Origin: Crocinitomicaceae bacterium
GTDB taxonomy: Bacteria > Bacteroidota > Bacteroidia > Flavobacteriales_D > Crocinitomicaceae
Assembly (NCBI GenBank): GCA_029252405.1
Contig: JAQXBM010000022.1
Coordinates: 124,001-188,000, forward strand
DNA: 64,000 nucleotides
Direction: 5' to 3'
The first letter of the stretch is position 1. The number at the start of each line of letters is the position of its first letter. Below the pieces are notes generated by a model that was given only the letters and a program-made list of their open reading frames with translations, had not been told where the DNA came from and ran no database searches. This document shows positions 11,785 to 59,181 of the stretch, one piece after another. The translations under genes were made by a program, and so were the position numbers.

Positions 11785-11792
11785 TAACTTTA
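11785..11792 (+). promoter_or_regulatory. -7-like box of ftsX, four bases before the start codon
   Basis: TAACTTTA, then ACCGT-type spacing of four bases to ATG 11797. Same spacing as at 12685, 24106 and 58615. Confidence 0.5.
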
Positions 11793-11796
11793 CCGT

Positions 11797-12687
11797 ATGG
11801 GCGAAGGCGCTGAAAAATATAGTCGAAAAGGAGTCAAAACCAGTTACATCTCAACGGTGATTGGGATTTCCTTGGTGCTATTCGTAATCGGTTTGGTGAT
11901 CGCGGCGGTTTTAGGACTCGATCGTGTTCAAACACAATCGAAAGAAAGCCTTGTATGCGACCTCTTTTTTGAAGCTGATTTGAACGAAGCGGACATCAAG
12001 CAAGTCGAGCAAGAACTGAAAACATGGGACGAATTTCGAGAGGTGTACTTCGTGTCTCCGGATCGAGCGCTTGAAACTTTCCAAGAACCCGGACAAGATG
12101 CTGAGGCAATATTAGCTGTCTTCGGAGATGAAAACCCAATGCCCCCGACAATCAGTTTTAAACCGAAAGAAGAACATGCCAATTCAGAAGGTTTGGAAGC
12201 AATTCGAACGAAACTCATGGCGGGTTACGGAGATCGAATTGAAGAGATGAACTACGACAAATCGATGGTGAAAAACGTCAATTTAGGCTTTAAACAGCTG
12301 GTTTGGCTCATTGGAGCTGTCGCATTACTGTTAATTATTGTTGCATTTGCCATGATGAACAATACCATTCGCTTGGCACTTTATTCAAAACGTTTCTCAA
12401 TCAAAACAATGCAATTGGTGGGTGCACGCTCGGGATATATCCGACGACCGTTTTTATGGCAATCCATTGGAATGGGCCTTATCAGCGCAATTTTAGGGAT
12501 GTCCATGGTGCTGCTCGTTATCTACGCAGTCAACAATCTGGTTGATTCCGTTGATGTAAGCATGGACATTTTTCACTTCTTAGTCCTACTCGGAGCACTC
12601 CTAATTATAGGGATTGTCATCTCTTTTGTCTCAACTTGGTTAGCACTTAACAAATATTTGAGAATGAAATTGGACGATTTGTATTAA
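11797..12687 (+). CDS. ftsX: Cell division protein FtsX (ABC transporter permease)
   Basis: 296 residues with the FtsX layout: a cytoplasmic N-terminus, a transmembrane helix at ~26-48, an extracellular domain to ~170, and three more helices (~172-192, ~225-250, ~258-282). Family knowledge: FtsX pairs with the ATPase FtsE and controls cell-wall hydrolases during division. No ftsE lies next to it in this window. It is first in the run ftsX, DUF3098, uppP, truB, queA, an order seen in other Bacteroidota. A -7-like box ends four bases before the ATG. Confidence 0.93.
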   Translation: MGEGAEKYSRKGVKTSYISTVIGISLVLFVIGLVIAAVLGLDRVQTQSKESLVCDLFFEADLNEADIKQVEQELKTWDEFREVYFVSPDRALETFQEPGQDAEAILAVFGDENPMPPTISFKPKEEHANSEGLEAIRTKLMAGYGDRIEEMNYDKSMVKNVNLGFKQLVWLIGAVALLLIIVAFAMMNNTIRLALYSKRFSIKTMQLVGARSGYIRRPFLWQSIGMGLISAILGMSMVLLVIYAVNNLVDSVDVSMDIFHFLVLLGALLIIGIVISFVSTWLALNKYLRMKLDDLY

Positions 12688-12692
12688 ATTTG
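12685..12692 (+). promoter_or_regulatory. Exact -7 box overlapping the ftsX stop codon
   Basis: TAAATTTG matches TAnnTTTG exactly; its first three bases are the TAA stop of ftsX. It ends four bases before the next ATG (12697), suggesting an extra internal promoter. Confidence 0.55.
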
Positions 12693-12696
12693 GTGC

Positions 12697-13077
12697 ATGA
12701 GTAAGAAAAAATCAAGTCCAAAAGGAAAGAAAGCAGAAATGCTTGACAGCGAAATGATCCAACAGCCTGTTGAAAAAGCTGCTGCTCCAGCTGAACAGGA
12801 AACTGTCGATTTAACGGAATTCAGAAAGACGCAACCGTTGTCGTTTAGCAAAGCGAATTACAAATTGTTGTTTATTGGACTTGGAATTAATATCCTCGGA
12901 TACATTTTAATGATTGGTGGTGCTGCTGAAGAATTGGATCAATTCGATGCAGATGCCTTGTTCAGTCATACACGTATCACGATTGCTCCTCTCTTAATTT
13001 TAGCCGGTTTTGCTTTGATTGCTTACGCGATTATGAAAAAGCCAAAGGCTGAGCCAGAAGCGGAAACGGAAGTTTAA
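12697..13077 (+). CDS. DUF3098 family membrane protein
   Basis: 126 residues. A Lys-rich N-terminus and an acidic linker are followed by the DUF3098 region: FSKANYKLLFIGLGIN, a first transmembrane helix (~62-82), a short loop and a second helix (~98-115), then an acidic tail. The function is unknown. In Bacteroidota this family is regularly found between ftsX and uppP, exactly as here, which hints at a link with division or envelope synthesis (inference). The gap to ftsX is nine bases and to uppP ten. Confidence 0.85.
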   Translation: MSKKKSSPKGKKAEMLDSEMIQQPVEKAAAPAEQETVDLTEFRKTQPLSFSKANYKLLFIGLGINILGYILMIGGAAEELDQFDADALFSHTRITIAPLLILAGFALIAYAIMKKPKAEPEAETEV

Positions 13078-13087
13078 ATAACCCTAC

Positions 13088-13894
13088 ATGAGTTTTTTAG
13101 ATGCGATTTTACTCGGAATCATTCAAGGATTAACCGAGTTTCTGCCCGTTAGCAGTAGTGGACACCTCGAAATTATGAAAGCGATTCAAGGACAGGAATT
13201 GTCTGGTGAATCAAGTATGATGATGACGGTCGTGCTGCACTTCGCAACTGCATTGAGCACCATCGCCGTATTTTGGAAAGAGGTTTTACGCATCATCAAA
13301 GGACTATTTCAATTCAAAATTAATGATGAGTTTTTGTTTTCAGCGAAGATTGTCATCTCCATGATTCCAGCCGCAGTGGTTGGTGTGTTTTTCGATGATT
13401 TCATTGAAAGCTTCTTCAGCGGAAAGATTTTATTAGTTGGATTGATGCTCATCGTAACTGGAATAATTCTATTTATTGCTGAAAGAGCGAAGCGAACCGA
13501 TAAATCTGTTGGATTCAAAGATGCAATGATAATTGGGGTCGCTCAAATGATCGCCATTCTCCCTGGTATTTCCAGATCTGGATCAACAATCGGAACATCA
13601 GTTATTCTAGGAATTGATCGTGAGCAAGCAGCGCGCTTTTCGTTTTTGATGGTCGTACCATTAATTTTAGGGAAAGTCGCAAAAGACGTGATGAGTTCAG
13701 ACTTTTCAAAAGAACTTGCGTCATCAGAAATCTCAAGTTCAGTATATGCCGCAGGATTCGCAGCGGCATTTCTCGTTGGAATCGTCGCTTGTACATGGAT
13801 GATTCAACTCGTTAAGAAAAGCAAGTTGAGTTACTTCGCTTACTATTGCTTCATTGCTGGAACTGCCACAATTTGTTGGTCATTATTCGCTTAA
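13088..13894 (+). CDS. uppP: Undecaprenyl-diphosphate phosphatase
   Basis: 268 residues, the usual length of the BacA/UppP family. The N-terminal motif QGLTEFLPVSSSGHLE and the second motif LPGISRSGSTI contain the Glu, Ser, His and Arg residues of the active site. About seven to eight transmembrane helices are visible. It dephosphorylates undecaprenyl pyrophosphate so that the lipid carrier can be reused for peptidoglycan and polysaccharide export; overexpression of this family confers bacitracin resistance. It lies in the ftsX-queA run, with a three-base gap to truB, so translation is probably coupled. Confidence 0.96.
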   Translation: MSFLDAILLGIIQGLTEFLPVSSSGHLEIMKAIQGQELSGESSMMMTVVLHFATALSTIAVFWKEVLRIIKGLFQFKINDEFLFSAKIVISMIPAAVVGVFFDDFIESFFSGKILLVGLMLIVTGIILFIAERAKRTDKSVGFKDAMIIGVAQMIAILPGISRSGSTIGTSVILGIDREQAARFSFLMVVPLILGKVAKDVMSSDFSKELASSEISSSVYAAGFAAAFLVGIVACTWMIQLVKKSKLSYFAYYCFIAGTATICWSLFA

Positions 13895-13897
13895 GAT

Positions 13898-14629
13898 ATG
13901 AGTTCACCGACAAGTTCAGCACCAGAACACATTCAAGAATTTGCAGCAGGAAGCACCATTTTGGTGGATAAACCCTTGAATTGGACCTCCTTTGATGTGG
14001 TCAATAAGATTCGATGGAACCTCAAACAAGTATTGGGCGTTAAGAAAATCAAAGTGGGACATGCAGGAACACTCGATCCTTTGGCAACTGGATTACTCGT
14101 TTTGTGCATTGGAAAACACACAAAGCAAATCAATGACATCATGGTAGGAACAAAAACCTACACGGGAACGATCTTACTGGGAAAAACAACACCATCCTTC
14201 GATTTAGAAACAGAATTCAACCAAGAATTTCCAATTGATCACATTACGGAAGAAGACTTTGAGCAGGTCCGAAAGTCGTTTTTAGGAGAGCAGCAACAAG
14301 TCCCGCCCATCTTTTCAGCCAAGCAAATTGACGGTAAACGTGCTTACGATCTTGCAAGAGCAGGAATAGAAGTAAAAATGAAATCGAATTCGGTCACAAT
14401 CGAAGATTTCAAAATTGATACTTCCGACTTGCCGAACGTGAAATTCGAAGTGACGTGTAGCAAAGGAACCTACATCCGTTCCATCGCAAATGATTTTGGG
14501 GAGCGACTCAAATCGGGTGGAACATTAATCGAACTTCGCAGAACACAATCAGGCGAACAACATATCAACGAGGCAAAAACTGTTGATGAGTGGATTGAGT
14601 TTATTCGGTCCGATCGTCCGATTGTCTGA
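13898..14629 (+). CDS. truB: tRNA pseudouridine(55) synthase
   Basis: 243 residues. The catalytic motif GHAGTLDPLATGLL contains the nucleophilic Asp. The later KGTYIRSIANDFG block is also typical of TruB. It makes pseudouridine 55 in the T-loop of tRNAs. The protein is shorter than E. coli TruB and lacks the C-terminal PUA-like extension, which is common in Bacteroidota. Its last codons (EFIRSDRPIV) fall inside the intergenic repeat that begins at about 14609, so the natural C-terminus may have been altered by the repeat. Confidence 0.96.
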   Translation: MSSPTSSAPEHIQEFAAGSTILVDKPLNWTSFDVVNKIRWNLKQVLGVKKIKVGHAGTLDPLATGLLVLCIGKHTKQINDIMVGTKTYTGTILLGKTTPSFDLETEFNQEFPIDHITEEDFEQVRKSFLGEQQQVPPIFSAKQIDGKRAYDLARAGIEVKMKSNSVTIEDFKIDTSDLPNVKFEVTCSKGTYIRSIANDFGERLKSGGTLIELRRTQSGEQHINEAKTVDEWIEFIRSDRPIV

Positions 14630-14711
14630 TTTTCGGATTGTCCGATATCTAAGTTGAAAACGGCGTTCTCGGATAATCTGATAATCTGAGAGCAAAGCGA
14701 TCGGAAAATCG
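14609..14711. repeat. Repeat family B: clustered TCCGAT/ATCGGA units overlapping the truB 3' end
   Basis: Many short units of the type TCCGATTGTCTGAT and ATCGGAAAATC in both orientations. Related copies lie at 39270 and 47820. The cluster begins before the truB stop (14627-14629) and ends just before the queA promoter. Confidence 0.7.
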
Positions 14712-14744
14712 AACTACCCACCCAAACCGAAACAAAAACTTTTT

Positions 14745-14752
14745 TATCTTTG
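14745..14752 (+). promoter_or_regulatory. -7 promoter box of queA
   Basis: TATCTTTG, an exact TAnnTTTG match, 57 bases before the ATG at 14810. It overlaps a TTG at 14750 that would otherwise be an upstream start, which argues for the downstream ATG. Confidence 0.6.
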
Positions 14753-14809
14753 CCACCCTTGATTTTAAACGCAAGAATCTCAAGGAATAAAAACCAAAGC
14801 AATCGGCGT

Positions 14810-15868
14810 ATGAACAAAATGAAATTATCTCAATTTAACTTCGAATTACCTGAGGAGTTAGTTGCAGAATATCCGAGCGATAACCGTGATGAGGCCCGTT
14901 TAATGGTTATTCACCGTGAAACAGGGAAAATTGAACATAAACTCTTCAAGGATTTGATCGATTACGTTGACGAAGAAGATGTGATGATCATGAACAACAC
15001 GAAGGTGTTTCCTGCTCGAATGTTTGGTAATAAAGAAAAAACTGGAGCGAAGATCGAGGTGTTTCTTTTGAGAGAATTGAACCGCGAAAGCTTGCTTTGG
15101 GATGTTTTGGTTGATCCAGCACGAAAAATCAGAATTGGAAATAAATTGTACTTCGGTGAAGACGAATCATTGGTTGCGGAGGTAATCGACAATACAACTT
15201 CACGTGGACGTACTTTGCGCTTCTTGTTTGATGGACCTTACGAGGAGTTCAAGCAGAAAATAACGGAATTAGGTCAAACACCACTTCCAAAATACATCAA
15301 GCGTGATGTAGAGAAAACGGATTCTGATCGTTACCAAACAATTTACGCAAAAGAAGAAGGAGCCGTGGCTGCACCAACCGCAGGATTACACTTCTCACGT
15401 CAATTGATGAAGCGTTTGGAATTGAAAGGAGTTGATTTCGCCGAGGTAACATTGCACATTGGATTGGGAACTTTCCGTCCGGTGGAAGTTGAAGACCTTA
15501 CGAAACACAAAATGGATTCTGAGCAAATGATCATTACGCAGGGATGCGCTGACACAGTAAACAAGGCGAAGAAAAACCGCAAGAAAGTATTTGCTGTTGG
15601 AACGACTTCGATGCGTGCGATTGAAACATCTGTTTCTACAGACGGTTTATTGAAGCCATACGAAGGTTGGACGAACAAATTCATCTTCCCACCATACGAA
15701 TTCAGTATTGCGGATGCATTGATCACAAACTTCCACACGCCATTATCAACATTGTTGATGATGATTTCCGCTTTCGGAGGTCACGAGCGCATGATGGATG
15801 CTTACCAACAAGCAATCAAAGAGAAATACAAATTCTACTCATACGGAGACGCAATGTTGATCCTTTAA
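14810..15868 (+). CDS. queA: S-adenosylmethionine:tRNA ribosyltransferase-isomerase
   Basis: 352 residues from ATG 14810 (a second ATG at 14819 gives [14 protein letters not shown], the usual family start). Characteristic blocks are [29 protein letters not shown] and [12 protein letters not shown]. It transfers and rearranges the ribosyl part of AdoMet onto 7-aminomethyl-7-deazaguanine in tRNA, giving epoxyqueuosine at the wobble position. It has its own promoter and a strong terminator at 15896, so it need not depend on the upstream operon. Confidence 0.96.
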
Positions 15869-15895
15869 GAGAACGAATTTTTAAATCATACTGAG

Positions 15896-15927
15896 AGCTC
15901 CGACATTTATCGTCGGAGCTTTTTTTG
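15896..15927 (+). terminator. Intrinsic terminator after queA
   Basis: Perfect nine-bp stem AGCTCCGAC / GTCGGAGCT with a seven-base loop, followed by seven Ts. It lies 27 bases after the queA stop. Confidence 0.9.
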
Positions 15928-15942
15928 TTCTTGGAAGATGGA

Positions 15943-16033
15943 CTTCGAGAGCCTCAGTCCGCAAATCGTTTGTAAAATGTTGGCATTTCGGAGAGTTGAT
16001 TGAGGGCTGAGGCTCTCGAAGCCCGAACTCCCT
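15943..16033. repeat. Intergenic inverted repeat (family A-like)
   Basis: Perfect 15-base arms CTTCGAGAGCCTCAG (15943-15957) and its complement (16007-16021), 49 bases apart, followed by CCCGAACTCC. The second arm resembles the CTGAGG...CCGAACTCC core of the copies at 39122, 47010 and 47707. Confidence 0.6.
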
Positions 16034-16083
16034 ATCACCACCCTCTCAATTAATCAATAAATCCAACGCTCCTCGTCCAAATT

Positions 16084-17007
16084 ATGACTACTTTTGTGGC
16101 GCAAAACACCTTCATGGACAAGACACAGGATATAAGCGCAAAAGCTCCGAGTAAGGTAAAATCATACATGGTTTTTACGAAGTTCCGCTTGTCCGCCTTA
16201 GTTGTGGTTTCTGCACTTTCTGGTTACCTCTTCATGGGTGGTTCAGACTTGAAAGAAATACTCTTGTTGGTTGTTGGTGGAACACTCGTTACAGCAGCGT
16301 CAAATGGTTCAAATCAGATTTGGGAGCGCGAGCTCGATAAAAAAATGAACCGAACATCGAAACGACCACTTCCACAAGGTCACATGTCGGTGAATGAAGC
16401 CTATACAATCGTGATTGTTTGTTTAATTGCTGGTTCCGCGATGCTCGCGATGCTCAACTTGTCATCTGCATTACTCGGACTGGGAGCATTCATCTCTTAC
16501 GTGTTCATCTACACACCGATGAAGCGTAAATCGCCTTGGGCGGTATTCGTTGGGGCATTTCCAGGAGCGATTCCACCAATGTTGGGTGCAATTGCCTTCA
16601 AAGAGGAATTTGGAATCGTACCAGGAATACTATTTTTTGTTCAGTTCATTTGGCAGTTCCCACACTTTTGGGCAATTGCTTGGGTGGCTTACGACGACTA
16701 CAACGCTGGTGGATTCTCACTTCTTCCTTCTAAACAAGGAAAATCAAAAAACTCGGCCTTTCAAATAGCCGTTTATTCATTGCTACTCATCCCATTCAGT
16801 TTAATGCCGTGGATACTCGGTTGGACAGGTTGGACATCCATGATTCTTGCTACCATCCTTGGTGCGGCATTTTTCTGGTATTCGTATAAATTATTCCTCA
16901 CGTGCGATGACAAAGACGCACGGAGAGTCATGTTTGCATCATTTTTATATCTCCCCGTAATTCAATTCATCTACGTGTTTGACAAAGTCGAGGGATTCAT
17001 TCCATAA
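16084..17007 (+). CDS. ctaB: Protoheme IX farnesyltransferase (heme O synthase)
   Basis: 307 residues from ATG 16084 (297 from 16114). A UbiA-type prenyltransferase with about eight to nine transmembrane helices. The first polyprenyl-diphosphate motif reads NQIWERELDKKMNRTSKRPLP in pieces: N...ERELD...NRT..RPLP; the first Asp of the usual NxxxDxxxD is Glu here. The second motif is YDDYNAGGF. It adds the farnesyl group to heme b for heme-copper oxidase. First gene of the oxidase block; the subunit III gene follows after ten bases. Confidence 0.93.
   Translation: MTTFVAQNTFMDKTQDISAKAPSKVKSYMVFTKFRLSALVVVSALSGYLFMGGSDLKEILLLVVGGTLVTAASNGSNQIWERELDKKMNRTSKRPLPQGHMSVNEAYTIVIVCLIAGSAMLAMLNLSSALLGLGAFISYVFIYTPMKRKSPWAVFVGAFPGAIPPMLGAIAFKEEFGIVPGILFFVQFIWQFPHFWAIAWVAYDDYNAGGFSLLPSKQGKSKNSAFQIAVYSLLLIPFSLMPWILGWTGWTSMILATILGAAFFWYSYKLFLTCDDKDARRVMFASFLYLPVIQFIYVFDKVEGFIP
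16089..16096 (+). promoter_or_regulatory. Possible -7 box at the start of ctaB
   Basis: TACTTTTG matches TAnnTTTG but lies five bases inside the frame that starts at 16084. If it is used, translation would start at the in-frame ATG 16114. Confidence 0.3.
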
Positions 17008-17017
17008 ATCAAATGTT

Positions 17018-18097: not shown

Positions 18098-18119
18098 ACT
18101 TGCATAAAAATTTTTCAGG

Positions 18120-19157: not shown

Positions 19158-19175
19158 TAGAAAATTGACTCAATT

Positions 19176-19544
19176 ATGTTAAGAGACGACGTTATAGAAT
19201 ATTCATTAGATGCTCATCACAGTGAGGAGCAAGGAAAGAAAATTCGCAAGAAAATTTGGCAAGTAACAGCCATTCTAACAGCAATCACAATTTTTGAGGT
19301 AGCAGTTGGAGCAACAATTAAGCAAAGTTCAGATTACTGGCAAGTCGTTAAATGGCTTTTCATTGGATTGACACTGTTGAAAGCGGGTTACATTGTTTTG
19401 GTATTTATGCACCTTGGAGATGAGCGTAAAGCAATGAGATATGTGATTCTCGTGCCTTACTTCATATTCATTTGCTATCTAATATTTATTGCTCTCTACG
19501 AAGGAACAGCCCTCGGGAACATCTGGACCCTCTACAGAGCATAA
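19176..19544 (+). CDS. Cytochrome c oxidase subunit IV family protein
   Basis: 122 residues with three transmembrane helices (~28-48, ~56-77 and ~85-108) and the sequence KAGYIVLVFMHLGDERKAMR, typical of prokaryotic caa3-type subunit IV. It stabilises the oxidase in the cytoplasmic membrane and has no catalytic centre. Its position directly after the two subunit III genes supports the call. Confidence 0.9.
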   Translation: MLRDDVIEYSLDAHHSEEQGKKIRKKIWQVTAILTAITIFEVAVGATIKQSSDYWQVVKWLFIGLTLLKAGYIVLVFMHLGDERKAMRYVILVPYFIFICYLIFIALYEGTALGNIWTLYRA

Positions 19545-19555
19545 CGCTATACTAA

Positions 19556-21431: not shown

Positions 21432-22559
21432 TCACTTTTTGAATTGTTGAACTAGCACTTCCCAGACTTTTTCTGCTGATTGATCCCATGAGAACAATTT
21501 GCTTCGCTTCAATCCTATTTGCGAGAGTTCATTTCTGAGCGTTTCGTTGGAACAGATCTCCGTCAGTTTCTCTGTGATATCATCCACATTGAGCGGATCG
21601 CAGTACAAAGCAGCATCACCTGCAACTTCAGGTAAAGAGGTCAAGTTTCCAGTTAAGATTGGCGTGCCACAACGCATGGCTTCAACCAAAGGAATTCCGA
21701 ACCCTTCGAAATAGGGAACGAAGGTGAATACGCTCGCAGAAGCCATCACTTGAGCCAGTTCCTCTAACGTTAAATGTCCCGTAAAGTGAATGTGTGATTT
21801 CGTTTGCTCATCAAAGGATAGATCATAACCCGATCGTTTCCACAGTGCTTCACCGACAATCACCAATTCGTACTCAAAATCGGGATCTGATTCCCGCACG
21901 TTTTGAAATGCTGCGATTAAGCGTTTTACGTTTTTTCGTGGATGCAAGGCTCCAACAAAGAGCAAGTACTTCTTTCCATTTGCGTACTTCCCACGAACCA
22001 CCATTTTTTGATCCGATGGAAGCGGGTTAAAACTTGTCGAAGCACCATTCCAGGAGACGGTCACCTTTGCTGGATCAATACCGTAAGTTGAACAGATATC
22101 CTGTTTTGAATATTCTGAAACAGTAAGAATGTGACTTGCCTTCTGTGCAAATCGCGGAAAGTACTTTCTTAAATACTTGCGAGCTCCTGAGGGAATATCT
22201 TCTGGATGATGTTCAAAATTGATGTCGTGAATGACTCCAACCTGAGGGATATGTGAAGTCAGTGATAGAAATCCATCGGGAGAGAAAAAGAGATCGGCCT
22301 CGTATTGCTTGAGTGCCCGCTTCACAGAATAATTGAACCAAATTCGGAACAAAATAGGATGTCGCGCCGGAGGATTCAACACCACCGGGGTTACGTTTGG
22401 TCCAAAAATAAACTTCTCATCATACGCGCGATCAAAGAAGAAAATGAATTCGTGTTTGGGGTTGTTTTCAACCAAACGCTTCACAATTTCAAAGGTATAC
22501 CAGCCAAAACCCTCCATCTTCGTTGGAAGCAAAAATCGTGTATTGACAGCTATGCGCAT
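21432..22559 (-). CDS. GT4-type glycosyltransferase (family 1)
   Basis: 375 residues with two Rossmann-like domains. An N-terminal substrate domain is followed by the nucleotide-sugar domain with LLFVGALHPRKNVKRLI, the FTGHL block and the E-x7-E type motif FEGFGIPLVEAMRCGTPI. It probably adds a hexose to a surface glycan or lipid; the acceptor is unknown. It stands alone on the minus strand. The ATG at 22559 is preceded by a -7-like box at four bases, predicting a leaderless transcript. Confidence 0.92.
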   Translation of the reverse strand: MRIAVNTRFLLPTKMEGFGWYTFEIVKRLVENNPKHEFIFFFDRAYDEKFIFGPNVTPVVLNPPARHPILFRIWFNYSVKRALKQYEADLFFSPDGFLSLTSHIPQVGVIHDINFEHHPEDIPSGARKYLRKYFPRFAQKASHILTVSEYSKQDICSTYGIDPAKVTVSWNGASTSFNPLPSDQKMVVRGKYANGKKYLLFVGALHPRKNVKRLIAAFQNVRESDPDFEYELVIVGEALWKRSGYDLSFDEQTKSHIHFTGHLTLEELAQVMASASVFTFVPYFEGFGIPLVEAMRCGTPILTGNLTSLPEVAGDAALYCDPLNVDDITEKLTEICSNETLRNELSQIGLKRSKLFSWDQSAEKVWEVLVQQFKK

Positions 22560-22563
22560 TGGC

Positions 22564-22571
22564 TAAAGTTA
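22564..22571 (-). promoter_or_regulatory. -7-like box of the glycosyltransferase, four bases before the start
   Basis: TAACTTTA on the minus strand, then GCCA, then ATG 22559. Confidence 0.5.
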
Positions 22572-24105: not shown

Positions 24106-24113
24106 TAACTTTA
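24106..24113 (+). promoter_or_regulatory. -7-like box of ppk1, four bases before the start
   Basis: TAACTTTA, then CAGC, then ATG 24118. Confidence 0.5.
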
Positions 24114-24117: not shown

Positions 24118-26178
24118 ATGGAATTAATCAATCGGGAAATTAGTTGGCTTTCATTCAATGAGCGTGTATTGCAAGAAGCGCTGGATGATACGGTTCCCAT
24201 TATCGAACGAATGCGATTTTTAGGGATTTACTCGAATAACATGGACGAGTTTTACCGCGTTCGTGTAGCCTACGTTCGACGATTGATTGCCATCAAAAAG
24301 AAAAAAGTAACTGGATTCAAAGGAACTCCTGCTGATTTGATGGATGAAATCAGGAATGTTGTAATGCGTCAACAGATCAAATTTCAAATCGCATACAAGA
24401 AGATCTTACTCGAACTCGAGCAGGAGAACATCTATCATGTTACGCACAAAGAGTTAACTCCTGAGCAGGAATTGGAGTTGAAAACATATTTCAAGCAGGA
24501 ATTGCAGCATGCGATTGTCCCAATCATCTTAACGAAGAAGAACCCCTTCCCGCACTTGAAGGATTCAGGGATTTATCTTGCCGTGGAGATGTATATGGAG
24601 GATAAAACGAAGCGAAGAATGGCGCTCATTCAAATTCCAAAGGAATTCCCACGCTTTTATCGAATGCAGGATGGCAGTACGCAGAAGATCATTTTATTGG
24701 ATGATATCATTCGATTGAACCTGAAAACCATTTTTTCTATATTCGTTTTTGATCACATCAAGGCGTATACGTTCAAGTTTTCCAGAGATGCTGAGTTAGA
24801 TATCGATGACGATATTTCTGTTTCGTTCATGGAGAAAATACGGCAGAGCATCAAAAAGCGAAAATTGGGCGAACCGGTTCGATTCGTTTACGACGAAAAA
24901 ATGTCGGAGGAACTCCTCAAGTTCATGTTGAAGAATTTGAATTTGAAAAAAGGAATCAACACGATCCCAGGAGGGAAATACCACAACTTTAAGGATTTCA
25001 TGTCCTTTCCCGATTTTTCAAGACAGGACTTTGTATTCGAGAAAAGACCACCAATTTGGCATCCGCGTATGGTGAACAAACGAAGCTTGCTCAAGGAAGT
25101 TGCGAAGGGTGATGTCTTGTTGCACTATCCGTATCAGCGATTTGATCACGTAGTAGATCTTCTTCGAGAATCTGCGATTGATCCTAAGGTGAAGTCGATA
25201 AAAATCAATGTGTATCGTGTAGCGAAGAAATCGCAAGTAATGAATGCTTTGATTAATGCAGTCCTTAATGGAAAGCAAGTATTCGTGGTCGTAGAGCTTC
25301 AAGCGCGTTTCGACGAGGAAAACAACCTGTATTGGGCAAATAGATTGAGAGAAGCTGGAGCGAAGGTATCCTTTGGGATGGAAACGCTCAAAGTGCACTC
25401 GAAAATGATTCAAATTCATAGAGCGGGCAGCAAAGGAGATACTTTAGTTTCGTACGTGGGAACGGGAAATTTCCATGAGAAAACCGCAAACATCTATGAA
25501 GATCTCGGCTTGTTAACGATTAACCCTAAAATTGGCGAAGAGGTCAACCGTATCTTTAATATTTTAGACGGTTTCACTAATAACTCGCGCTTTGAAACAC
25601 TACTCGTTTCTCCCTTCACAACACGTCAGGAATTTGGTGAATTGATTGAGAATGAAATTCAAAATGCACAAAAAGGAAGGGAAGCATCCATCAGAATAAA
25701 ATTCAACAATTTGGTGGATTCGGATATGATCAAACTGTTGTACAGAGCAAGTGCCGCAGGAGTGAAAATCGATATGATTGTTCGCGGAATTTGCTGTTTG
25801 ATTCCAGAAAAAGAAGGCTTGAGCGAAAACATTCGGGTCCAAAGCATCGTTGGACGCTATTTGGAGCATTCGCGCTACCTCATATTCCACAATGGTGGAT
25901 CACCAAAGTATTACTTGTCAAGCGCCGATTGGATGGAAAGAAATCTCGATGGCCGAATTGAAGTGGGATGCCCCATTTTTGACCCAAAAATTCAAGAACG
26001 ACTGGAAAACATCTTCGAAATTCAGTGGAAAGGAAATGTGAAATCGAGAATTATTGATGAGTTTCAATCAAATCGCTACTATCGCGATGACAACGAGCCC
26101 TTCTTTTCACAAGACGAGATGTATAAATATTACGAGGAATCTGCCCAACTGGCCGCTAAATTGAATCCGACAAAGTAA
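24118..26178 (+). CDS. ppk1: Polyphosphate kinase 1
   Basis: 686 residues, full family length. It begins with the conserved INREISWLSFNERVLQEA block. The C-terminal phospholipase-D-like domains contain the phosphate-accepting His in KVHSKM (H427) and the second conserved His in GNFHEKTA (H453). It makes polyphosphate from ATP, reversibly, in the cytoplasm. A -7-like box lies four bases before the ATG. The 3' end overlaps a small convergent membrane-protein gene by 23 bases. Confidence 0.96.
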   Translation: MELINREISWLSFNERVLQEALDDTVPIIERMRFLGIYSNNMDEFYRVRVAYVRRLIAIKKKKVTGFKGTPADLMDEIRNVVMRQQIKFQIAYKKILLELEQENIYHVTHKELTPEQELELKTYFKQELQHAIVPIILTKKNPFPHLKDSGIYLAVEMYMEDKTKRRMALIQIPKEFPRFYRMQDGSTQKIILLDDIIRLNLKTIFSIFVFDHIKAYTFKFSRDAELDIDDDISVSFMEKIRQSIKKRKLGEPVRFVYDEKMSEELLKFMLKNLNLKKGINTIPGGKYHNFKDFMSFPDFSRQDFVFEKRPPIWHPRMVNKRSLLKEVAKGDVLLHYPYQRFDHVVDLLRESAIDPKVKSIKINVYRVAKKSQVMNALINAVLNGKQVFVVVELQARFDEENNLYWANRLREAGAKVSFGMETLKVHSKMIQIHRAGSKGDTLVSYVGTGNFHEKTANIYEDLGLLTINPKIGEEVNRIFNILDGFTNNSRFETLLVSPFTTRQEFGELIENEIQNAQKGREASIRIKFNNLVDSDMIKLLYRASAAGVKIDMIVRGICCLIPEKEGLSENIRVQSIVGRYLEHSRYLIFHNGGSPKYYLSSADWMERNLDGRIEVGCPIFDPKIQERLENIFEIQWKGNVKSRIIDEFQSNRYYRDDNEPFFSQDEMYKYYEESAQLAAKLNPTK

Positions 26179-26420: not shown

Positions 26421-26428
26421 TACCTTTG
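26421..26428 (+). promoter_or_regulatory. -7 promoter box of galE
   Basis: TACCTTTG, an exact TAnnTTTG match, six bases before ATG 26435. It shows that the longer in-frame extension upstream is not translated. Confidence 0.6.
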
Positions 26429-26434
26429 GAGGAA

Positions 26435-27478
26435 ATGACGCAAAACGAATACATTCTTGTCACAGGAGGAGCCGGATACATTGGTTCGCACACCGTTGTG
26501 GAGCTGATCCAAAATGGGAAAACTCCAGTGATCGTCGACGACTTTCGAAATGCTGTTCCAAGTATTCTAACTGGGATTGAAAAAATCGTTGAGCAATCGG
26601 TGATTTGTCATCAAATTGACGTTTGTGATCATCAAGCAATGCTTTCTGTTTTTGAGAAGTATAATTTTGAAGGAATCATTCATTTTGCGGCGTATAAAGC
26701 GGTCGGAGAATCGGTTCAAGAACCATTGAAGTACTACAACAATAATCTTAGGGGGTTACTGGTTTGCTTAACTTTGGCAGAGGAATTTGAAGTACATAAT
26801 TTCTTGTTTTCATCTTCTTGCACGGTCTACGGATCACCGGAAAACTCACCTGTTGTTACGGAGGAATCACCTGTGCTCGAGGCAAGCTCACCGTATGGTG
26901 CAACGAAGCAAATGTGCGAACGCATCCTTTCAGATTTAAGCAATAGTGACTCGAAAATCAAAGTGCTGAACCTCCGTTATTTCAACCCAATTGGTGCACA
27001 CTCTTCAAGTTTGATCGGAGAGTTGCCAACAGGCGAGCCAAATAACCTACTGCCGTATGTCACGCAAACGGCATTGGGAATTCTCGATGAACTTACTGTT
27101 TACGGAAATGATTACAATACAGTGGATGGAACATGTGTCCGAGATTTTATTCACGTTTCAGATCTCGCAGACGCCCACGTGAAAGGCCTCGACTGGTTAA
27201 CAAAACAGACAGGTTCATTCAATGAAGTAATCAATGTTGGAACAGGTGAGGGGGCAAGTGTTTTGGAAATAATTCATACCTTCGAGAAAGTGTCTAACCA
27301 ACAATTGAATTGGAAGTTTGGTGAGAGGAGAACAGGTGACGTTGAGCAAATTTATGCGGATGTCGCCAAAGCGAAGAAATTACTCAATTGGTCGACAGAA
27401 CGTAGCATGGAAGATGCCGTGAGAGATGCGTGGAATTGGGAACAAAAATGGAGAAATGAAACAACTGATAATAGCTAG
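26435..27478 (+). CDS. galE: UDP-glucose 4-epimerase
   Basis: 347 residues from ATG 26435. Short-chain dehydrogenase fold with the NAD motif TGGAGYIGSH, the catalytic Ser/Thr region SSSCTVYG and the YxxxK motif Y-G-A-T-K (SSPYGATKQ). It interconverts UDP-glucose and UDP-galactose for surface glycans. The open frame continues upstream to 26333, but a consensus promoter box lies there. The gene overlaps the following outer-membrane protein gene by 23 bases. Confidence 0.95.
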   Translation: MTQNEYILVTGGAGYIGSHTVVELIQNGKTPVIVDDFRNAVPSILTGIEKIVEQSVICHQIDVCDHQAMLSVFEKYNFEGIIHFAAYKAVGESVQEPLKYYNNNLRGLLVCLTLAEEFEVHNFLFSSSCTVYGSPENSPVVTEESPVLEASSPYGATKQMCERILSDLSNSDSKIKVLNLRYFNPIGAHSSSLIGELPTGEPNNLLPYVTQTALGILDELTVYGNDYNTVDGTCVRDFIHVSDLADAHVKGLDWLTKQTGSFNEVINVGTGEGASVLEIIHTFEKVSNQQLNWKFGERRTGDVEQIYADVAKAKKLLNWSTERSMEDAVRDAWNWEQKWRNETTDNS

Positions 27479-36898: not shown

Positions 36899-36923
36899 TT
36901 AGTGAAGCGTGTAGTTCATAAGC

Positions 36924-36931
36924 TAAAGTTA
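36924..36931 (-). promoter_or_regulatory. -7-like box of the LysR gene, four bases before the original start
   Basis: TAACTTTA on the minus strand, then GCTT, then ATG 36919, the start of the MNYTLH-stop frame. Confidence 0.5.
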
Positions 36932-44748: not shown

Positions 44749-44756
44749 TACCTTTG
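44749..44756 (+). promoter_or_regulatory. -7 promoter box of the Fic gene, three bases before the start
   Basis: TACCTTTG, an exact TAnnTTTG match, then GGT, then ATG 44760. A TTG start at 44754 would overlap the box. Confidence 0.6.
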
Positions 44757-51529: not shown

Positions 51530-51568
51530 TTCGGCAAGGTTATTGCCTTAGATAGAGAAAATCGAAAA

Positions 51569-52366: not shown

Positions 52367-52441
52367 AATGGAGCATTACTTAGATTTCGGCTTAGTTTTT
52401 GTAACTTAGGAAGAATACTAGAAAATCGCATTTGTTTAACA

Positions 52442-53434: not shown

Positions 53435-53484
53435 TTTCTGGCTGAAGCAGTTCGCGAATAGGTGAACATTTCTTATACTTAACG

Positions 53485-54246: not shown

Positions 54247-55012
54247 CAGAGTAACTCGTTCCAGTACATTTCAAACCGTCTTCAGGCCAAAGTTGCTCAA
54301 TGTTCACTCCTTCGGGCGCCGATTGCGCGAATTCCAATGCGTCGTTATAGCAATTGTGATGCGTCGCAAAACACTCGCTCAATTCTTTCTTGGAGCGATA
54401 AAACAGACTTCCCAAATAATTCGGGATGCTCTTTGACATCTTTTTGGTGAGGTGAGAGGTACGGAGAATTAGTATATCATCTGCACCTTGATCTGCTGTC
54501 CACCGAATAGGAATGGGATCGCTCCAAGCGCCATCCATCAAGTCCATATTTTGCACTTTATGAATCCCTTTCGTAATAAATGGAAGTGTACACGAAGCAA
54601 TAACGACCTCCACCCAATCTTTATCGCTTGGGGCAAGATATTCGGCCGTTCCCGTCTCGCGGTTTGTCGCCACGAAGTGAACCTCTTTGTCTTTCGCCGC
54701 GACTAATGCTTTTTCAACGTGAAACGGAACATGTTCGAAGGCTACCTCGCGCAAATAATCGATGTTCATGTATCCACGCTCCTTGATGATGTGCTTTAAC
54801 TTCACAAATTCAGGATCATTTGCCAGCCAATACATTGCTTCAACGCAAGAACCATATTGTTTTGCCAAATAGTAGGAAGAGGCGATTGCACCTCCGGAAA
54901 CACCAACGATACGCTCAAAAGGATAGTATTCTAACGCCATAAATGCGTCCAGAACTCCTGCCGTGAATCCTGTGCGAAATCCACCGCCCTCTACAATTAG
55001 TGTTTTACTCAT
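54173..55012 (-). CDS. Patatin-like phospholipase, copy 1
   Basis: 279 residues. Oxyanion loop EGGGFRTGF, nucleophile elbow G37-V-S39-G-G and catalytic D160-G (MDGAWSDP), all in place. No signal peptide. About two thirds identical to the upstream copy 2, with the same length and motif positions, so a recent tandem duplication. Likely hydrolyses acyl esters of phospholipids or lipid droplets. Its end overlaps the convergent membrane-protein gene by 74 bases. Confidence 0.92.
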   Translation of the reverse strand: MSKTLIVEGGGFRTGFTAGVLDAFMALEYYPFERIVGVSGGAIASSYYLAKQYGSCVEAMYWLANDPEFVKLKHIIKERGYMNIDYLREVAFEHVPFHVEKALVAAKDKEVHFVATNRETGTAEYLAPSDKDWVEVVIASCTLPFITKGIHKVQNMDLMDGAWSDPIPIRWTADQGADDILILRTSHLTKKMSKSIPNYLGSLFYRSKKELSECFATHHNCYNDALEFAQSAPEGVNIEQLWPEDGLKCTGTSYSVNSIKTDYRYGLQVGLDFVQKELT

Positions 55013-55071
55013 GAGGGGCGAACTTAAAACGATTTTTGGAAAGATGCAATAGGCAGGAGGTAATTCGCATG

Positions 55072-55914
55072 TTAGTCTCGCAAGGATTTTTTGACGTAGT
55101 CCATTCCCATTTGAACCCCATAGCGATAATCAGAATTAATGCCTTCCACCGAATAACTGTAAGTACTGCATTTGAGACCATCTTCGGGCCAAAGCTGTTC
55201 AATGTTTGTGTCCTCAGGTGGGTTGGATAAGTAATCCATGACATTGTTGTACTTGAGGTGGTTATTGGCAAAACAAGCGCTTAACTCAGGATGACTTCTG
55301 AAATAAATACTCCCAAAATAATCCGGCCAACTCTGAACCACTTTGCGATCAATATGCGTTGTTCGAAGTACCAAAATATCTTTTGCACCTTGTTCGACTG
55401 CCCATTTCACAGGAATAGGATCGCTCCAGCCACCGTCCATTAAATCCAAATCGCGGACTTTGTGCACACCTTTCGTCACAAAAGGCAATGTGCTCGACGC
55501 AATCACAACTTCAATCCAATCGGGTTGTTTCGGTGATAAATAGAAGGGCTCACCAGTCAATCGATTCGTGGCAACGAAGAATACATCTCTGTTTTTTGTG
55601 TTTTCGAGTGCAGCATTCAAATCGAATGGAACCAAATCATCAGCAACTGAGCGCAAATGATCGATGTTCATGTATCCGCGATCACGAATTATTCCACGCA
55701 CATTCACGAAGTCGGGATCCTTGGCGAGTAATCGCATCGCCTCTACACAAGACCCGTATTGTTTTGCCAAATAGTAGGAAGCGGAAATAGCACCTCCGGA
55801 ATTCCCGATTATTTGATCAAATGGGCAGTAGTCGAGCACCAAAAATGCGTCTAAAATTCCTGCTGTAAATCCTGTTCTAAATCCTCCGCCTTGAACGATT
55901 AATGTCTTCTTCAT
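55072..55914 (-). CDS. Patatin-like phospholipase, copy 2
   Basis: 280 residues. QGGGFRTGF oxyanion loop, nucleophile elbow G37-N-S39-G-G, catalytic D160-G (MDGGWSDP). It has the same layout as copy 1 and lies 59 bases upstream of it on the same strand, so the pair is probably co-transcribed. The residue before the nucleophile differs (Asn for Val), as do positions in the middle of the protein, which could change specificity. Confidence 0.92.
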   Translation of the reverse strand: MKKTLIVQGGGFRTGFTAGILDAFLVLDYCPFDQIIGNSGGAISASYYLAKQYGSCVEAMRLLAKDPDFVNVRGIIRDRGYMNIDHLRSVADDLVPFDLNAALENTKNRDVFFVATNRLTGEPFYLSPKQPDWIEVVIASSTLPFVTKGVHKVRDLDLMDGGWSDPIPVKWAVEQGAKDILVLRTTHIDRKVVQSWPDYFGSIYFRSHPELSACFANNHLKYNNVMDYLSNPPEDTNIEQLWPEDGLKCSTYSYSVEGINSDYRYGVQMGMDYVKKSLRD

Positions 55915-55994
55915 GAGTTATGTTGATTATTATATGCGCGCATAACAATAGTAACGATAATTCTACAATGAAGGTTGAGGTCGAGAGGTATTTT

Positions 55995-56240
55995 TTACAA
56001 CTTTTTTAGCTTTTTCTGTTCTGAAGGCAAAGGATTCTGTTTGAAGTAGTCCAAAAGGACAAAATTTCGATCTTCAAAGTGCTCATTTAACACCTTGAAA
56101 TGTCGAATCCGATCGACGCGAAACGAACGGTAATCTTCCCTCAAATAACACCAAGCGACCAACAGCCACTTCCGGTTTGTAGAAATCAGCTGTGTAACTT
56201 CTTTTCTTCTTTGACATTTTGCTAATTTAAGTTCTAGCAA
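55995..56240 (-). pseudogene. Remnant of a WYL-domain transcriptional regulator
   Basis: 81 residues matching only the C-terminal end of the WYL domain (RKWLLVAWCYLREDYRSFRV followed by DRIRHF), which in complete regulators sits after an HTH and ~220 further residues. Nothing upstream in any frame on the minus strand continues the match. The 5' part has been lost by deletion. The gap to 56316 holds no gene. Confidence 0.7.
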
Positions 56241-56306
56241 GAATATCTTAACTCACTGTCCAGTCTAATGTAGCACTTCCAGTTTCATAGAATCTAAAAA
56301 TAAGAA

Positions 56307-56357
56307 ATAAAAAAAAGCCCATTCTAATTCCCGATAGCTATCGGGAATTGGAATGGG
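56307..56357 (-). terminator. Terminator of lysS, built on the CCGATAGCTATCGG palindrome
   Basis: Arms GCCCATTC / GAATGGGC enclose a 24-bp perfect palindrome (56326-56349) with core CCCGATAGCTATCGGG. On the minus strand a run of eight Ts follows, so it ends the lysS transcript. Confidence 0.88.
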
Positions 56358-56377
56358 CCAATCTATTTTATCTGTGA

Positions 56378-58093
56378 TCAAGCGACTACTTCAATCGTCA
56401 ATCCAGCATCAGTCTTCGTGACTTTCGATAAACCGTGTTTCGCTAATCCTTTCACACCTTTATCCCATTGCTTGTTCGATAATCCAGCTGCTTCTTTCAA
56501 AGCACCCAAATCCATCGATTTCTCTTTGGAAAGAATGTCAAAAATCAACTTCTCGTTATCAGTTAATTCTGGTCCTTTTTTCTCGTTGAATTTCTCTTGT
56601 TTCATTTGAGGGAAGAACAATACTTCTTGGATCGACTGGTTGTCCGTTAAGTACATCAGTAAACGATCCATTCCAATTCCCAATCCAGATGTTGGTGGCA
56701 TTCCATATTCCAATGCACGCAAGAAATCTTGATCGATCAAACCATTTGCTTCGTCATCTCCTTTTTCAGCTAAGCGAACTTGTTCTTCAAAACGCTCACG
56801 TTGATCAATTGGATCATTCAACTCCGAGTAAGCATTCGCGATTTCTTTACCACAAACCATTAACTCGAAACGTTCCGTCAATTCTGGATTGTCTCTGTGT
56901 GTTTTACACAGTGGCGACATTTCCTTCGGGTAATCAGTAATGAACGTCGGCTGAATGTAATTTCCTTCACATTTTTCTCCGAAAATCTCATCGATCAACT
57001 TTCCTTTACCCATGGTTTCATCAACAGCGATTCCCATTCCAAGTGCAGCTGTTCTCAATTCATCTTCTGACTTTCCTGAGATATCATATCCAGTAAAGTG
57101 TTTGATTGAATCGGCCATGGTAACACGCGCGTATGGTGCTTTGAAGTCCACTTTGTGATCTCCAAAAGTTGCCTCTGTCGTTCCGTTAACGGCAATTGCA
57201 CAGTGTTCCAATAAGCGTTCTGCGAAATCCATCATCCAGTTGTAATCTTTGTACGAAACATAGATTTCCATCGCCGTAAACTCTGGATTGTGGGTTCTGT
57301 CCATTCCTTCATTTCTGAAGTTTTTTGAGAACTCATACACACCATCAAATCCACCAACGATCAATCGTTTCAAGTACAACTCATTCGCGATTCGCATGTA
57401 CAATGGAACGTCCAATGCATTGTGATGCGTGATGAACGGTCGTGCAGATGCTCCTCCTGGGATCGGTTGCAAAATCGGTGTTTCCACTTCCAAATATCCT
57501 GCATCATTGAAGAAACCACGCATCGCATTAAACAACTTCGTACGCTTAATGAATACTTCTTTCACTTGAGGATTTACCACCAAATCAACATAACGCTGAC
57601 GGTATCTCAATTCAGGATCAGTAAAAGCATCGTGAACATTTCCTTGATCATCTTGCTTTGGAAGCGGTAAGGGCTTCACAGATTTACTGAGCATTTCAAG
57701 TTCATCAACGTGTACTGAGATTTCCCCAACTTGCGTTTTGAACATTTTTCCTTTGATTCCAACGAAATCACCAAGATCCATTAATTTCTTGAAGACGTCA
57801 TTGTACAATGTTTTGTCTTCGCCTGGGCACAATTCATCTCGATTCAAGTACACCTGAATACGTCCTGATGAATCCAAAATCTCAGCAAAAGATGCTTTCC
57901 CCATAATTCGGCGGGACATCATTCTACCAGCAATGCACACCTGTTTGCCTTCCTCATATGTTTCCTTGATCTTGGATGCAAGGTCTGTTACTGGATAAAG
58001 CGCAGCTGGAAATGGTTCAATTCCCAGAGCACGCAACTTTGACAACGATTCTCTTCGCTGTACCTCCTGATCAGAAAGCTCAATGTGACTCAT
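56378..58093 (-). CDS. lysS: Lysine-tRNA ligase, with C-terminal extension
   Basis: 571 residues from ATG 58093. OB-fold anticodon-binding domain (GRMMSRRIMGKASFAEILDS) and class II core with motif 2 (FRNEGMDRTHNPEFTAMEIY) and motif 3 (GLGIGMDRLLMYLTDN). The last ~70 residues (LTDNEKLIFDILSKEKSMDL...) form a winged-helix-like extension, absent in E. coli LysS but usual in Bacteroidota. An open frame begins at a TTG 27 bases upstream, but that codon lies inside the consensus promoter box at 58118. Terminator at 56307. Confidence 0.96.
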   Translation of the reverse strand: MSHIELSDQEVQRRESLSKLRALGIEPFPAALYPVTDLASKIKETYEEGKQVCIAGRMMSRRIMGKASFAEILDSSGRIQVYLNRDELCPGEDKTLYNDVFKKLMDLGDFVGIKGKMFKTQVGEISVHVDELEMLSKSVKPLPLPKQDDQGNVHDAFTDPELRYRQRYVDLVVNPQVKEVFIKRTKLFNAMRGFFNDAGYLEVETPILQPIPGGASARPFITHHNALDVPLYMRIANELYLKRLIVGGFDGVYEFSKNFRNEGMDRTHNPEFTAMEIYVSYKDYNWMMDFAERLLEHCAIAVNGTTEATFGDHKVDFKAPYARVTMADSIKHFTGYDISGKSEDELRTAALGMGIAVDETMGKGKLIDEIFGEKCEGNYIQPTFITDYPKEMSPLCKTHRDNPELTERFELMVCGKEIANAYSELNDPIDQRERFEEQVRLAEKGDDEANGLIDQDFLRALEYGMPPTSGLGIGMDRLLMYLTDNQSIQEVLFFPQMKQEKFNEKKGPELTDNEKLIFDILSKEKSMDLGALKEAAGLSNKQWDKGVKGLAKHGLSKVTKTDAGLTIEVVA

Positions 58094-58117
58094 AACTGTT
58101 TTGTAAAAATGAATTGG

Positions 58118-58125
58118 CAAAGATA
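58118..58125 (-). promoter_or_regulatory. -7 promoter box of lysS
   Basis: TATCTTTG on the minus strand, 24 bases before ATG 58093. Confidence 0.6.
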
Positions 58126-58245
58126 GAAAGAATTAGCTTCGCAGAGAAGGTCGTTCATAGAGTAAAATCAGCCATTCAACGCAAGTTGAATTGATTTTGA
58201 TGGATTTTTTACGAATTGATTCTGGATAGTGAAATTTAAACGAAA

Positions 58246-58320
58246 AAAAGTCGAAGAAGCATGCGCACGTTTGGCAGAATTTCTACTCAAAGCAAGGAAA
58301 GCGCATGCATTCGACTTTTA
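58246..58320 (-). terminator. Long hairpin with minus-strand T run; possible end of a small RNA
   Basis: Arms AAAAGTCGAA...GCATGCGC (58247-58266) and GCGCATGC...TTCGACTTTT (58301-58320) with a 34-base loop. On the minus strand the stem is followed by seven Ts. No minus-strand gene lies just upstream, so it would end an unannotated transcript, or be a structured RNA. The rest of 58126-58485 holds nothing I can identify. Confidence 0.5.
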
Positions 58321-58485
58321 ATAAAAGGCTAGGATTAATTACTGTAACTCAGCATTAATTCTATTCGGTTTTTGGTTCGACTGTCATGTCTACTCATACA
58401 CGACATTCTCTAAATTGAATTATTGTAGCGGAAAGTTAACGATAGATTGCAGCTAGCCTGCGTGAATTGCCCACTAATTTCAAAA

Positions 58486-58572
58486 ATGGGTGAAAAACTA
58501 GTATTCGACGAAGATCGCATTACGGAATTCCGACAAGATTTAGCACCTTTCGGCACTAACGATCAACTATGA
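58486..58572 (+). CDS. Possible 28-residue peptide or gene fragment
   Basis: ATG 58486 to TGA 58572 encodes a charged 28-residue peptide (MGEKLVFDEDRITEFRQDL...). It could be the remnant of a larger gene. No promoter box or homology is visible; very weak call. Confidence 0.15.
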   Translation: MGEKLVFDEDRITEFRQDLAPFGTNDQL

Positions 58573-58589
58573 ATAACTCTCAACACAAA

Positions 58590-58622
58590 TTGATTTTCAA
58601 TTCAATATTCGAACTATCTTTG
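58590..58622 (+). promoter_or_regulatory. Promoter of hemJ (-33 TTG, -7 TATCTTTG)
   Basis: TTG at 58590-58592 and TATCTTTG at 58615-58622 with a 22-base spacer. The -7 box ends four bases before ATG 58627. Confidence 0.6.
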
Positions 58623-58626
58623 ACCA

Positions 58627-59181
58627 ATGGACTTTAGTACAATAAAAGCATTGCACATCATCTTCGTAGTAAGTTGGTTCGCTGGACTCTTCTATATTGT
58701 CCGCTTGTTCATCTACCACACTGAAGCTCAAGACAAAGAAGAAAACGAAAAACGCATTCTTTCCAATCAATTCGAGATCATGGAAAGTCGATTGTGGTGG
58801 ATTATCACCACTCCTGCAATGGTGCTGACGTTTGTTTTCGGAACGTGGATGGTCATTCTCAATTGGGAATACTATCTCAGCGCACCATGGATGCAACTCA
58901 AATTTGCCTTTGTCGGTGTCCTGCTGATCTATCATTTCATCTGCCAGAAAATACTATTTGACCTCAAAAAAGGTTTATACAAATGGAAATCGAACGGATT
59001 ACGCCTTTGGAACGAATTGGCAACGCTTTGTTTGGTGGCCATTGTGTTCCTTGTTGTATTGAAAGATGGATTGAATTGGATCAAAGGAACAGTTGGCTTC
59101 TTCGCAGTGGCAATTGGGTTGATGGTCCTTATTAAGCTTTACAAACGAATTAGAAGCCGATCGAACAACAGTTCGACATGA
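58627..59181 (+). CDS. hemJ: HemJ/CopD-family membrane protein, probable protoporphyrinogen IX oxidase
   Basis: 184 residues with four to five transmembrane helices. The N-terminal KALHIIFVVSWFAGLFYIVR with conserved His and Arg, and the middle W..LK....LLIYHF pattern, match the UPF0093/HemJ family, which oxidises protoporphyrinogen IX in heme synthesis. It has its own promoter and likely starts a leaderless transcript. The enoyl-CoA hydratase gene follows after 19 bases. Confidence 0.87.
   Translation: MDFSTIKALHIIFVVSWFAGLFYIVRLFIYHTEAQDKEENEKRILSNQFEIMESRLWWIITTPAMVLTFVFGTWMVILNWEYYLSAPWMQLKFAFVGVLLIYHFICQKILFDLKKGLYKWKSNGLRLWNELATLCLVAIVFLVVLKDGLNWIKGTVGFFAVAIGLMVLIKLYKRIRSRSNNSST

What the first reader, a model, noticed from the sequence alone, without database searches (positions are those of the whole stretch)
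11785..58629. Recurrent -7 box exactly four bases before the start codon predicts many leaderless mRNAs
Seen directly: TAnnTTTG/A followed by four bases and ATG at ftsX (11785), DUF3098 (12685), glycosyltransferase (22564, minus), ppk1 (24106), LysR original start (36924, minus) and hemJ (58615). The same box stands three bases before the Fic start (44749) and six before galE (26421). Known: TAnnTTTG is the Bacteroidota -7 element and transcription starts a few bases after it. Inference: these mRNAs start at or within a base or two of AUG, so this lineage may use leaderless translation widely. Under even base composition, a fixed-position match to TAnnTTTR is expected at about 1 in 2,000 starts, so six at N4 among some 60 genes is far above chance.
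Basis: partly seen in the sequence, partly recalled or inferred. Interest (0 to 1): 0.72.

Follow-up and report, generated by a model that had tools for sequence, protein, structure and literature searches.

The report
Leaderless genes common in Bacteroidota lineage
In this Bacteroidota lineage roughly a quarter of the recognisable promoters sit so close to the start codon that the messenger RNA should begin right at the AUG, more than has been mapped in the three Bacteroidota species compared here.

Summary
All eight boxes are at the stated offsets. In 864 kb of the same genome, with starts called blind to the box, TAnnTTTR peaks four bases before ATG: 22 of 644 genes against 1.43 per offset by chance. 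A hump at about 15-24 marks ordinary leaders; offsets 8-13 are at background. A matrix trained only on leadered boxes recovers the N4 peak. Upstream of RNase P RNA, which is not translated, 28 of 29 genus loci carry the box 3-7 bases (22 at 4-5) before the model's 5' end; so the box is a promoter element, and at N4 the mRNA should start at or next to AUG. At hemJ the spacing is kept in 28 of 29 genus rows while the spacer varies. About 25-30% of box-bearing promoters look leaderless, against 8-9% (wide interval) by the same method in a Flavobacterium genome and about 40% in another Bacteroidia genome. Leaderless mRNA and this box are known; the high, lineage-dependent share is the new part, though one comparative paper already suggests leaderless genes in Bacteroidetes. 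No transcript start has been mapped here.

The parts
11785..11792 (+). -7 box TAACTTTA, 4 bases before ftsX ATG (11797)
   Evidence: TAnnTTTR at N4-N7 in 17 of 29 genus rows (own included)
11797..12687 (+). ftsX, predicted leaderless
12685..12692 (+). -7 box TAAATTTG, 4 bases before DUF3098 ATG (12697); its first three bases are the ftsX stop codon
   Evidence: N4 in 9 and N3 in 1 of 12 start-aligned rows (own included) out of 26
12697..13077 (+). DUF3098 gene, predicted leaderless from its own promoter, possibly also translated from the ftsX mRNA
22564..22571 (-). -7 box TAACTTTA, 4 bases before glycosyltransferase ATG (22559)
21432..22559 (-). glycosyltransferase (Glyco_transf_4, Glycos_transf_1), predicted leaderless
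24106..24113 (+). -7 box TAACTTTA, 4 bases before ppk1 ATG (24118)
   Evidence: TTTG at N3-N5 in 34 of 71 usable named relatives, but strict TAnnTTTG at N4 in 0 of 71
24118..26178 (+). ppk1, predicted leaderless
26421..26428 (+). -7 box TACCTTTG, 6 bases before galE ATG (26435): predicted leader of about 2 nt
36924..36931 (-). -7 box TAACTTTA, 4 bases before an ATG (36919) that opens only six codons; a LysR frame follows
44749..44756 (+). -7 box TACCTTTG, 3 bases before Fic-domain gene ATG (44760)
58615..58622 (+). -7 box TATCTTTG, 4 bases before hemJ ATG (58627)
   Evidence: N4 in 26 and N5 in 2 of 29 genus rows (own included)
58627..59181 (+). hemJ (UPF0093), predicted leaderless

Best explanation
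The box is the -7 element of the Bacteroidota primary sigma factor. RNA polymerase starts 4-5 bases after it (mapped in F. johnsoniae by others; inferred here from RNase P RNA). Where the box lies four bases before ATG, the mRNA begins with that AUG, and the ribosome starts on the 5'-terminal AUG without a leader (inferred). The lineage runs two modes side by side: leaderless genes (offset 3-5) and genes with leaders of about 10 nt or more (offset about 14-32), with few leaders between. The leaderless share, 25-30% of box-bearing promoters, is about three times that found by the same method in one Flavobacterium genome.
For: N4 peak at box-blind starts: 22 of 644 against 1.43 per offset; letter-shuffled control boxes show no such peak. 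ATG-specific: GTG 2 and TTG 3 at N4, within their backgrounds. 34 of 55 ATGs at N4 open a frame of 60 codons or more, against 31 of 119 at N6-12. A matrix trained on leadered boxes alone finds the peak. N3-5 boxes are rare inside tight operons: 2 of 139 genes with a gap under 20, against 14 of 178 divergent genes. RNase P calibration 28 of 29. Kept spacing with a varying spacer at hemJ, less strictly at ftsX and DUF3098. N4/N19 counts: 21 same-family genomes 1.19-2.84, 6 genomes of the Flavobacterium genus 0.95-1.07, Mann-Whitney P about 7e-6. That genus was identified from one member, G060, by uL4 identity to 7jil_D (that 7jil is the F. johnsoniae ribosome is recalled).
Against: No transcript start or protein N-terminus was measured. 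Gene starts come from a simple caller that misplaces some. ppk1: strict TAnnTTTG at N4 in 0 of 71 relatives (the A is kept in 21 of the 25 with TTTG at N4, the first T is not), and a second recurrent offset at N26-27 suggests leaders in some of them. ftsX: 12 of 29 rows lack the strict box at N3-7. TAnnTTTY, not part of the consensus, also has 5 at N4, so the box is looser than stated. G080, same family: a 163 kb sample gave 1 leaderless against 11 leadered TTTG boxes although its whole-genome count is high. G221, chosen for a high whole-genome ratio, gave 0 at N4 and 2 against 7 in 87 kb. Own against Flavobacterium at gene level is modest: 22/63 against 5/47, P 0.026. 7 of 20 leaderless candidates searched outside the window have no Pfam match. 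A -33 element was not specifically tested.
Confidence: 0.85

Rival explanations
1. The box is a translation signal (for example an AU-rich ribosome or S1 site) inside a longer leader, not a promoter.
For: AU-rich upstream signals are a usual Bacteroidota reading (PMC3160421 and PMC9581028, passages).
Against: The same box stands before RNase P RNA, which is not translated; it is the published -7 consensus; the matrix of boxes 13-32 bases away finds it.
Confidence: 0.06
2. The ATG four bases after the box is not the start codon; translation begins downstream and the mRNA has a short leader.
For: Start calls are ab initio; some genes have further ATGs.
Against: ATGs at N4 open long frames more often than at N6-12. 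At hemJ and ftsX most tblastn matches run from residue 1.
Confidence: 0.07
3. Chance matches in AT-rich upstream DNA.
For: Six genes were picked by eye from one window.
Against: Peak outside the window, 18 of 587 genes; control boxes without it; orthologue conservation.
Confidence: 0.01

Closest known systems
Leaderless genes of Actinobacteria and Deinococcus-Thermus (PMC3160421, passages)
   Same: Promoter element at a short distance from the start codon; leadered and leaderless genes in one genome.
   Different: Found there through Pribnow-like boxes; here it is the Bacteroidota -7 box. That study scored 1 of 37 Bacteroidetes/Chlorobi genomes as having leaderless genes (2.4%) and warns that other promoter types would be missed.
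Promoters of Flavobacterium johnsoniae, F. psychrophilum and Bacteroides thetaiotaomicron (PMC6847099, PMC9723704, PMC7366714; passages)
   Same: TAnnTTTG box; in F. johnsoniae the RNA start is 4-5 bases downstream.
   Different: Few short leaders there: 13% at 10 nt or less (genes with a probable promoter), 5.5% leaderless, about 3.7% under 10 nt.
Kozak-like A-rich start regions of F. johnsoniae (PMC6847099, abstract start and passages)
   Same: Leadered genes here are A-rich 11-12 bases before AUG: 0.67-0.68, against 0.50-0.52 in genes without a recognised box.
   Different: Leaderless genes would have no such leader.

Membership tests
Leaderless mRNA | RNA 5' end at or within a few bases of AUG | not testable with these tools
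   Inferred from box spacing and RNase P calibration; no RNA data.
Leaderless mRNA | Promoter element at a fixed short distance from the start codon | tested here: met
   N4 peak; orthologues
Leaderless mRNA | AUG rather than GUG or UUG start | tested here: met
   No GTG or TTG peak at N4
Leaderless mRNA | Translated from the 5'-terminal AUG | not testable with these tools
   Needs ribosome profiling or a reporter assay.
Bacteroidota primary-sigma promoter | -7 element TAnnTTTG | tested here: met
   last base G or A here, 4 of the window's 8 boxes end in A
Bacteroidota primary-sigma promoter | RNA start 4-5 bases after the element | tested here: met
   RNase P model 5' end: 22 of 29 at 4-5, 28 of 29 at 3-7; a model edge, not a mapped end
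Bacteroidota primary-sigma promoter | -33 TTTG element | tested here: inconclusive
   Only upstream composition was compared: T in the triplet 4-6 bases above the box is 0.51 for 30 leaderless, 0.48 for 104 leadered and 0.39 for 38 far boxes

The most novel reading that the evidence does not exclude
Leaderless initiation is a major and evolutionarily switchable mode in Bacteroidota: a third to a majority of box-bearing promoters in some lineages (genome G153, family f9, and family f32 outside the class Bacteroidia), with leaders of 1-9 nt avoided, and with genes such as hemJ passing between a leaderless state (this family) and a leadered or operonic state (Flavobacteriaceae).
Probability: 0.4. 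Interest if true: 0.66.

Novelty: new member of a known kind. Interest (0 to 1): 0.5.

Why it matters
Bacteroidia ribosomes do not recognise Shine-Dalgarno sequences (PMC9976891, start of abstract), and how they choose start codons is still being worked out. Mapping in three species made leaderless mRNA look minor. If it is a quarter or more of promoters in other lineages, models built on Flavobacterium and Bacteroides do not cover the phylum, gene-start prediction should include an N4 model, and the phylum offers a natural comparison of leaderless and leadered versions of the same gene.

Tried and rejected
Family f9 at gene level: too few boxes (5 against 11 raw TTTG, pooled). f32: 8 against 5 raw, a lead only. 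A at -3 did not separate leaderless from leadered genes. GeneMarkS-2 paper not held. hemJ outside the genus: loci could not be cut, so 20 short upstream stretches were read. The script was one base out of frame for its 8 plus-strand rows; redid all 20: box at N4 or N5 in 3 of 3 same-family genomes, N4 in 1 of 2 f9 genomes, N3-5 in 0 of 15 others (one of these at N7, three at N16-17, one without an ATG). The 16S anti-SD sequence and initiation factors were not examined.

Dropped rows: RNase P, 3 fragment rows of 32; ppk1, 9 of 80 relatives (N-terminus missing, too near an edge, or start unclear); hemJ, 1 of 30 loci (N-terminus missing); ftsX, 1 of 30 (no ATG); DUF3098, 14 of 26 rows whose start did not align exactly, and one of the 12 kept (L221) has an unresolved start. 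Of 30 own N3-5 genes, 20 outside the window and 5 in it were searched in Pfam; 5 at N5 were not.

Full report
What was checked. The six N4 boxes, the N3 box at Fic and the N6 box at galE are present as described; coordinates in the finding are box starts. Pfam gives FtsX, DUF3098, glycosyltransferase, polyphosphate kinase, LysR, UPF0093 (hemJ by recall), Fic and epimerase families for the eight genes. The window lies in G000, 4.28 Mb in 102 contigs. The best named ppk1 relatives are MAGs titled Fluviicola, Crocinitomicaceae or Flavobacteriales, so the organism is most likely in or near Fluviicola, family Crocinitomicaceae; this is inference from record titles.

Offset histogram. In 864 kb (window plus 40 stretches) a codon-model caller that never sees the box gave 662 genes, 644 with 80 bases upstream. 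TAnnTTTG stands at N4 in 15 and TAnnTTTA in 7; offsets 8-13 have 0-1 of each; a hump follows at 15-24 and fades by about 32. Boxes with the letters in other orders have no such peak; TAnnTTTY has 5 at N4, so looser boxes probably work too. With the background from offsets 8-12 and 45-60 the chance of 22 or more at N4 is about 6e-19. Starting from every ATG, 34 of 55 at N4 open 60 or more codons, against 31 of 119 at N6-12. GTG and TTG show no peak at N4.

How many. Net of background, strict boxes give 25.7 leaderless (N3-5) and 75.4 leadered (N13-32), a share of 0.25 (bootstrap 0.16-0.36); with G only, 0.30 (0.18-0.42). A softened matrix trained only on leadered boxes gives 32-37 against 84-90 at its two loosest thresholds and 12-25 against 37-72 at the two tighter ones. 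Leaderless genes are thus about 4-6% of all genes, and about a quarter of promoters that can be recognised. Candidates outside the window include DnaB, an RF-1 family release factor, a UPF0004/radical SAM/TRAM protein, an ABC transporter and an endonuclease I with a secretion tail; 7 of the 20 searched have no Pfam match.

Is it a promoter, and where does RNA begin. In F. johnsoniae many starts lie 4 or 5 bases after the box (PMC6847099, passages). In this genus 28 of 29 RNase P RNA loci carry TAnnTTTR 3-7 bases before the 5' end of the RNA model: 1 at 3, 13 at 4, 9 at 5, 2 at 6, 3 at 7; the one without lies near a contig end. That RNA is not translated, so the box is a transcription signal, and N4 places the mRNA start at AUG or within a base or two. 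The Rfam model edge is not a mapped end.

Conservation. hemJ in the genus, 29 rows with the window's own included: N4 in 26, N5 in 2, none in 1; the box columns carry 0.7-2.0 bits, the four spacer columns 0.18-0.34; a few columns above the box are also biased. ftsX: TAnnTTTR at N4 8, N5 3, N6 5, N7 1 of 29; the other 12 lack the strict box there. DUF3098: N4 9, N3 1 of 12 start-aligned rows of 26; its box begins with the ftsX stop codon, so part of the conservation is coding. ppk1 in 71 usable named relatives: TTTG at N4 25, N3 5, N5 4, against about 1.2 per offset, but strict TAnnTTTG at N4 in none, and a second recurrent offset at N26-27. Outside the genus, hemJ has the box at N4 or N5 in 3 of 3 same-family genomes and N4 in 1 of 2 f9 genomes, and at N3-5 in 0 of 15 genomes of other families; in G068, G041 and G051 it stands 16-17 bases away.

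Comparison across the phylum. The same pipeline on 400 kb of a genome of the Flavobacterium genus gives 0.08-0.09, with intervals that include zero, in line with 5.5% leaderless in F. psychrophilum (PMC9723704, passages). The genus was recognised because uL4 of G060 agrees with chain 7jil_D at 204 of 209 residues by my count of the alignment; G095 shares its genus label. G153, another Bacteroidia genome, gives 0.40-0.41. Whole-genome counts of TAnnTTTG-N4-ATG over N19: family f1 1.74 (21 genomes), f9 2.44 (20), f10 2.18 (3), f3 1.15 (16), f44 1.15 (6), Flavobacterium genus 0.99 (6), f32 4.06 (8) (typed). The phylum part of that table holds 47 chosen genomes of 148; families without an evident N4 excess, such as f24, f25 and f31, were left out of it. 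Against the trend, 163 kb of G080 gave 1 against 11 and 87 kb of G221 gave 2 against 7.

What is known. Zheng et al. found leaderless genes in 1 of 37 Bacteroidetes/Chlorobi genomes but looked only for Pribnow-like boxes and say so (PMC3160421, passages). Nakagawa et al. [quoted passage not shown] A 2024 paper speaks of leaderless mRNA in some Flavobacteriia that lack CCUCC in 16S rRNA (PMC10783764, passages). B. thetaiotaomicron has about 3.7% of 5' UTRs under 10 nt (PMC7366714, passages). So the idea is in print, while the mapped shares that I saw are low. Searches for leaderless with Fluviicola (0 papers) and with Bacteroidota and transcription start site (1 paper, a riboswitch review by its title) showed no report for this lineage; searches showed none in their listings (held library only; some listings were cut at 15-30 papers).

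Mechanism. Shown by sequence: box, spacing, ATG-only, conservation, non-coding calibration. Inferred: RNA start at AUG and initiation on a 5'-terminal AUG. Not shown: translation itself. Confidence was lowered by 0.01 and interest by 0.02 on checking, for the ppk1 second offset and the prior statements in print.

Noticed in passing
window 36899-36931, minus: The box-proximal ATG of the LysR-type gene opens only six codons before an in-frame TAA; a LysR frame continues from a TTG directly after. Possibly an inactivation, a restart, or an assembly error.
   Followed up: partly
window 12685-12692: The DUF3098 promoter box shares its first bases with the ftsX stop codon, and this overlap recurs in genus relatives.
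   Followed up: partly
window 26421-26437: galE has an SD-like GGAGGA overlapping the space between its box and ATG; with a predicted 2-nt leader it could not act as one.
   Followed up: no
G182 (family f32, outside Bacteroidia), L274-L293: Strict TTTG box near starts: 8 at N3-5 against 5 at N13-32, and C at -1 and -2 in nearly half of genes; a possible lineage where leaderless dominates.
   Followed up: partly
L052, L043, L045, L050, L089: Records titled Glaciecola, Chryseobacterium gleum, Planktophila, Chitinophaga and Polynucleobacter carry a ppk1 as close to the query (55-59%) as Crocinitomicaceae MAGs do; the titles look wrong.
   Followed up: no
L299 and L328 (genome G255): Two RNase P RNA matches in one genome, one of them near a contig end and without the box; contamination or duplication.
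   Followed up: no
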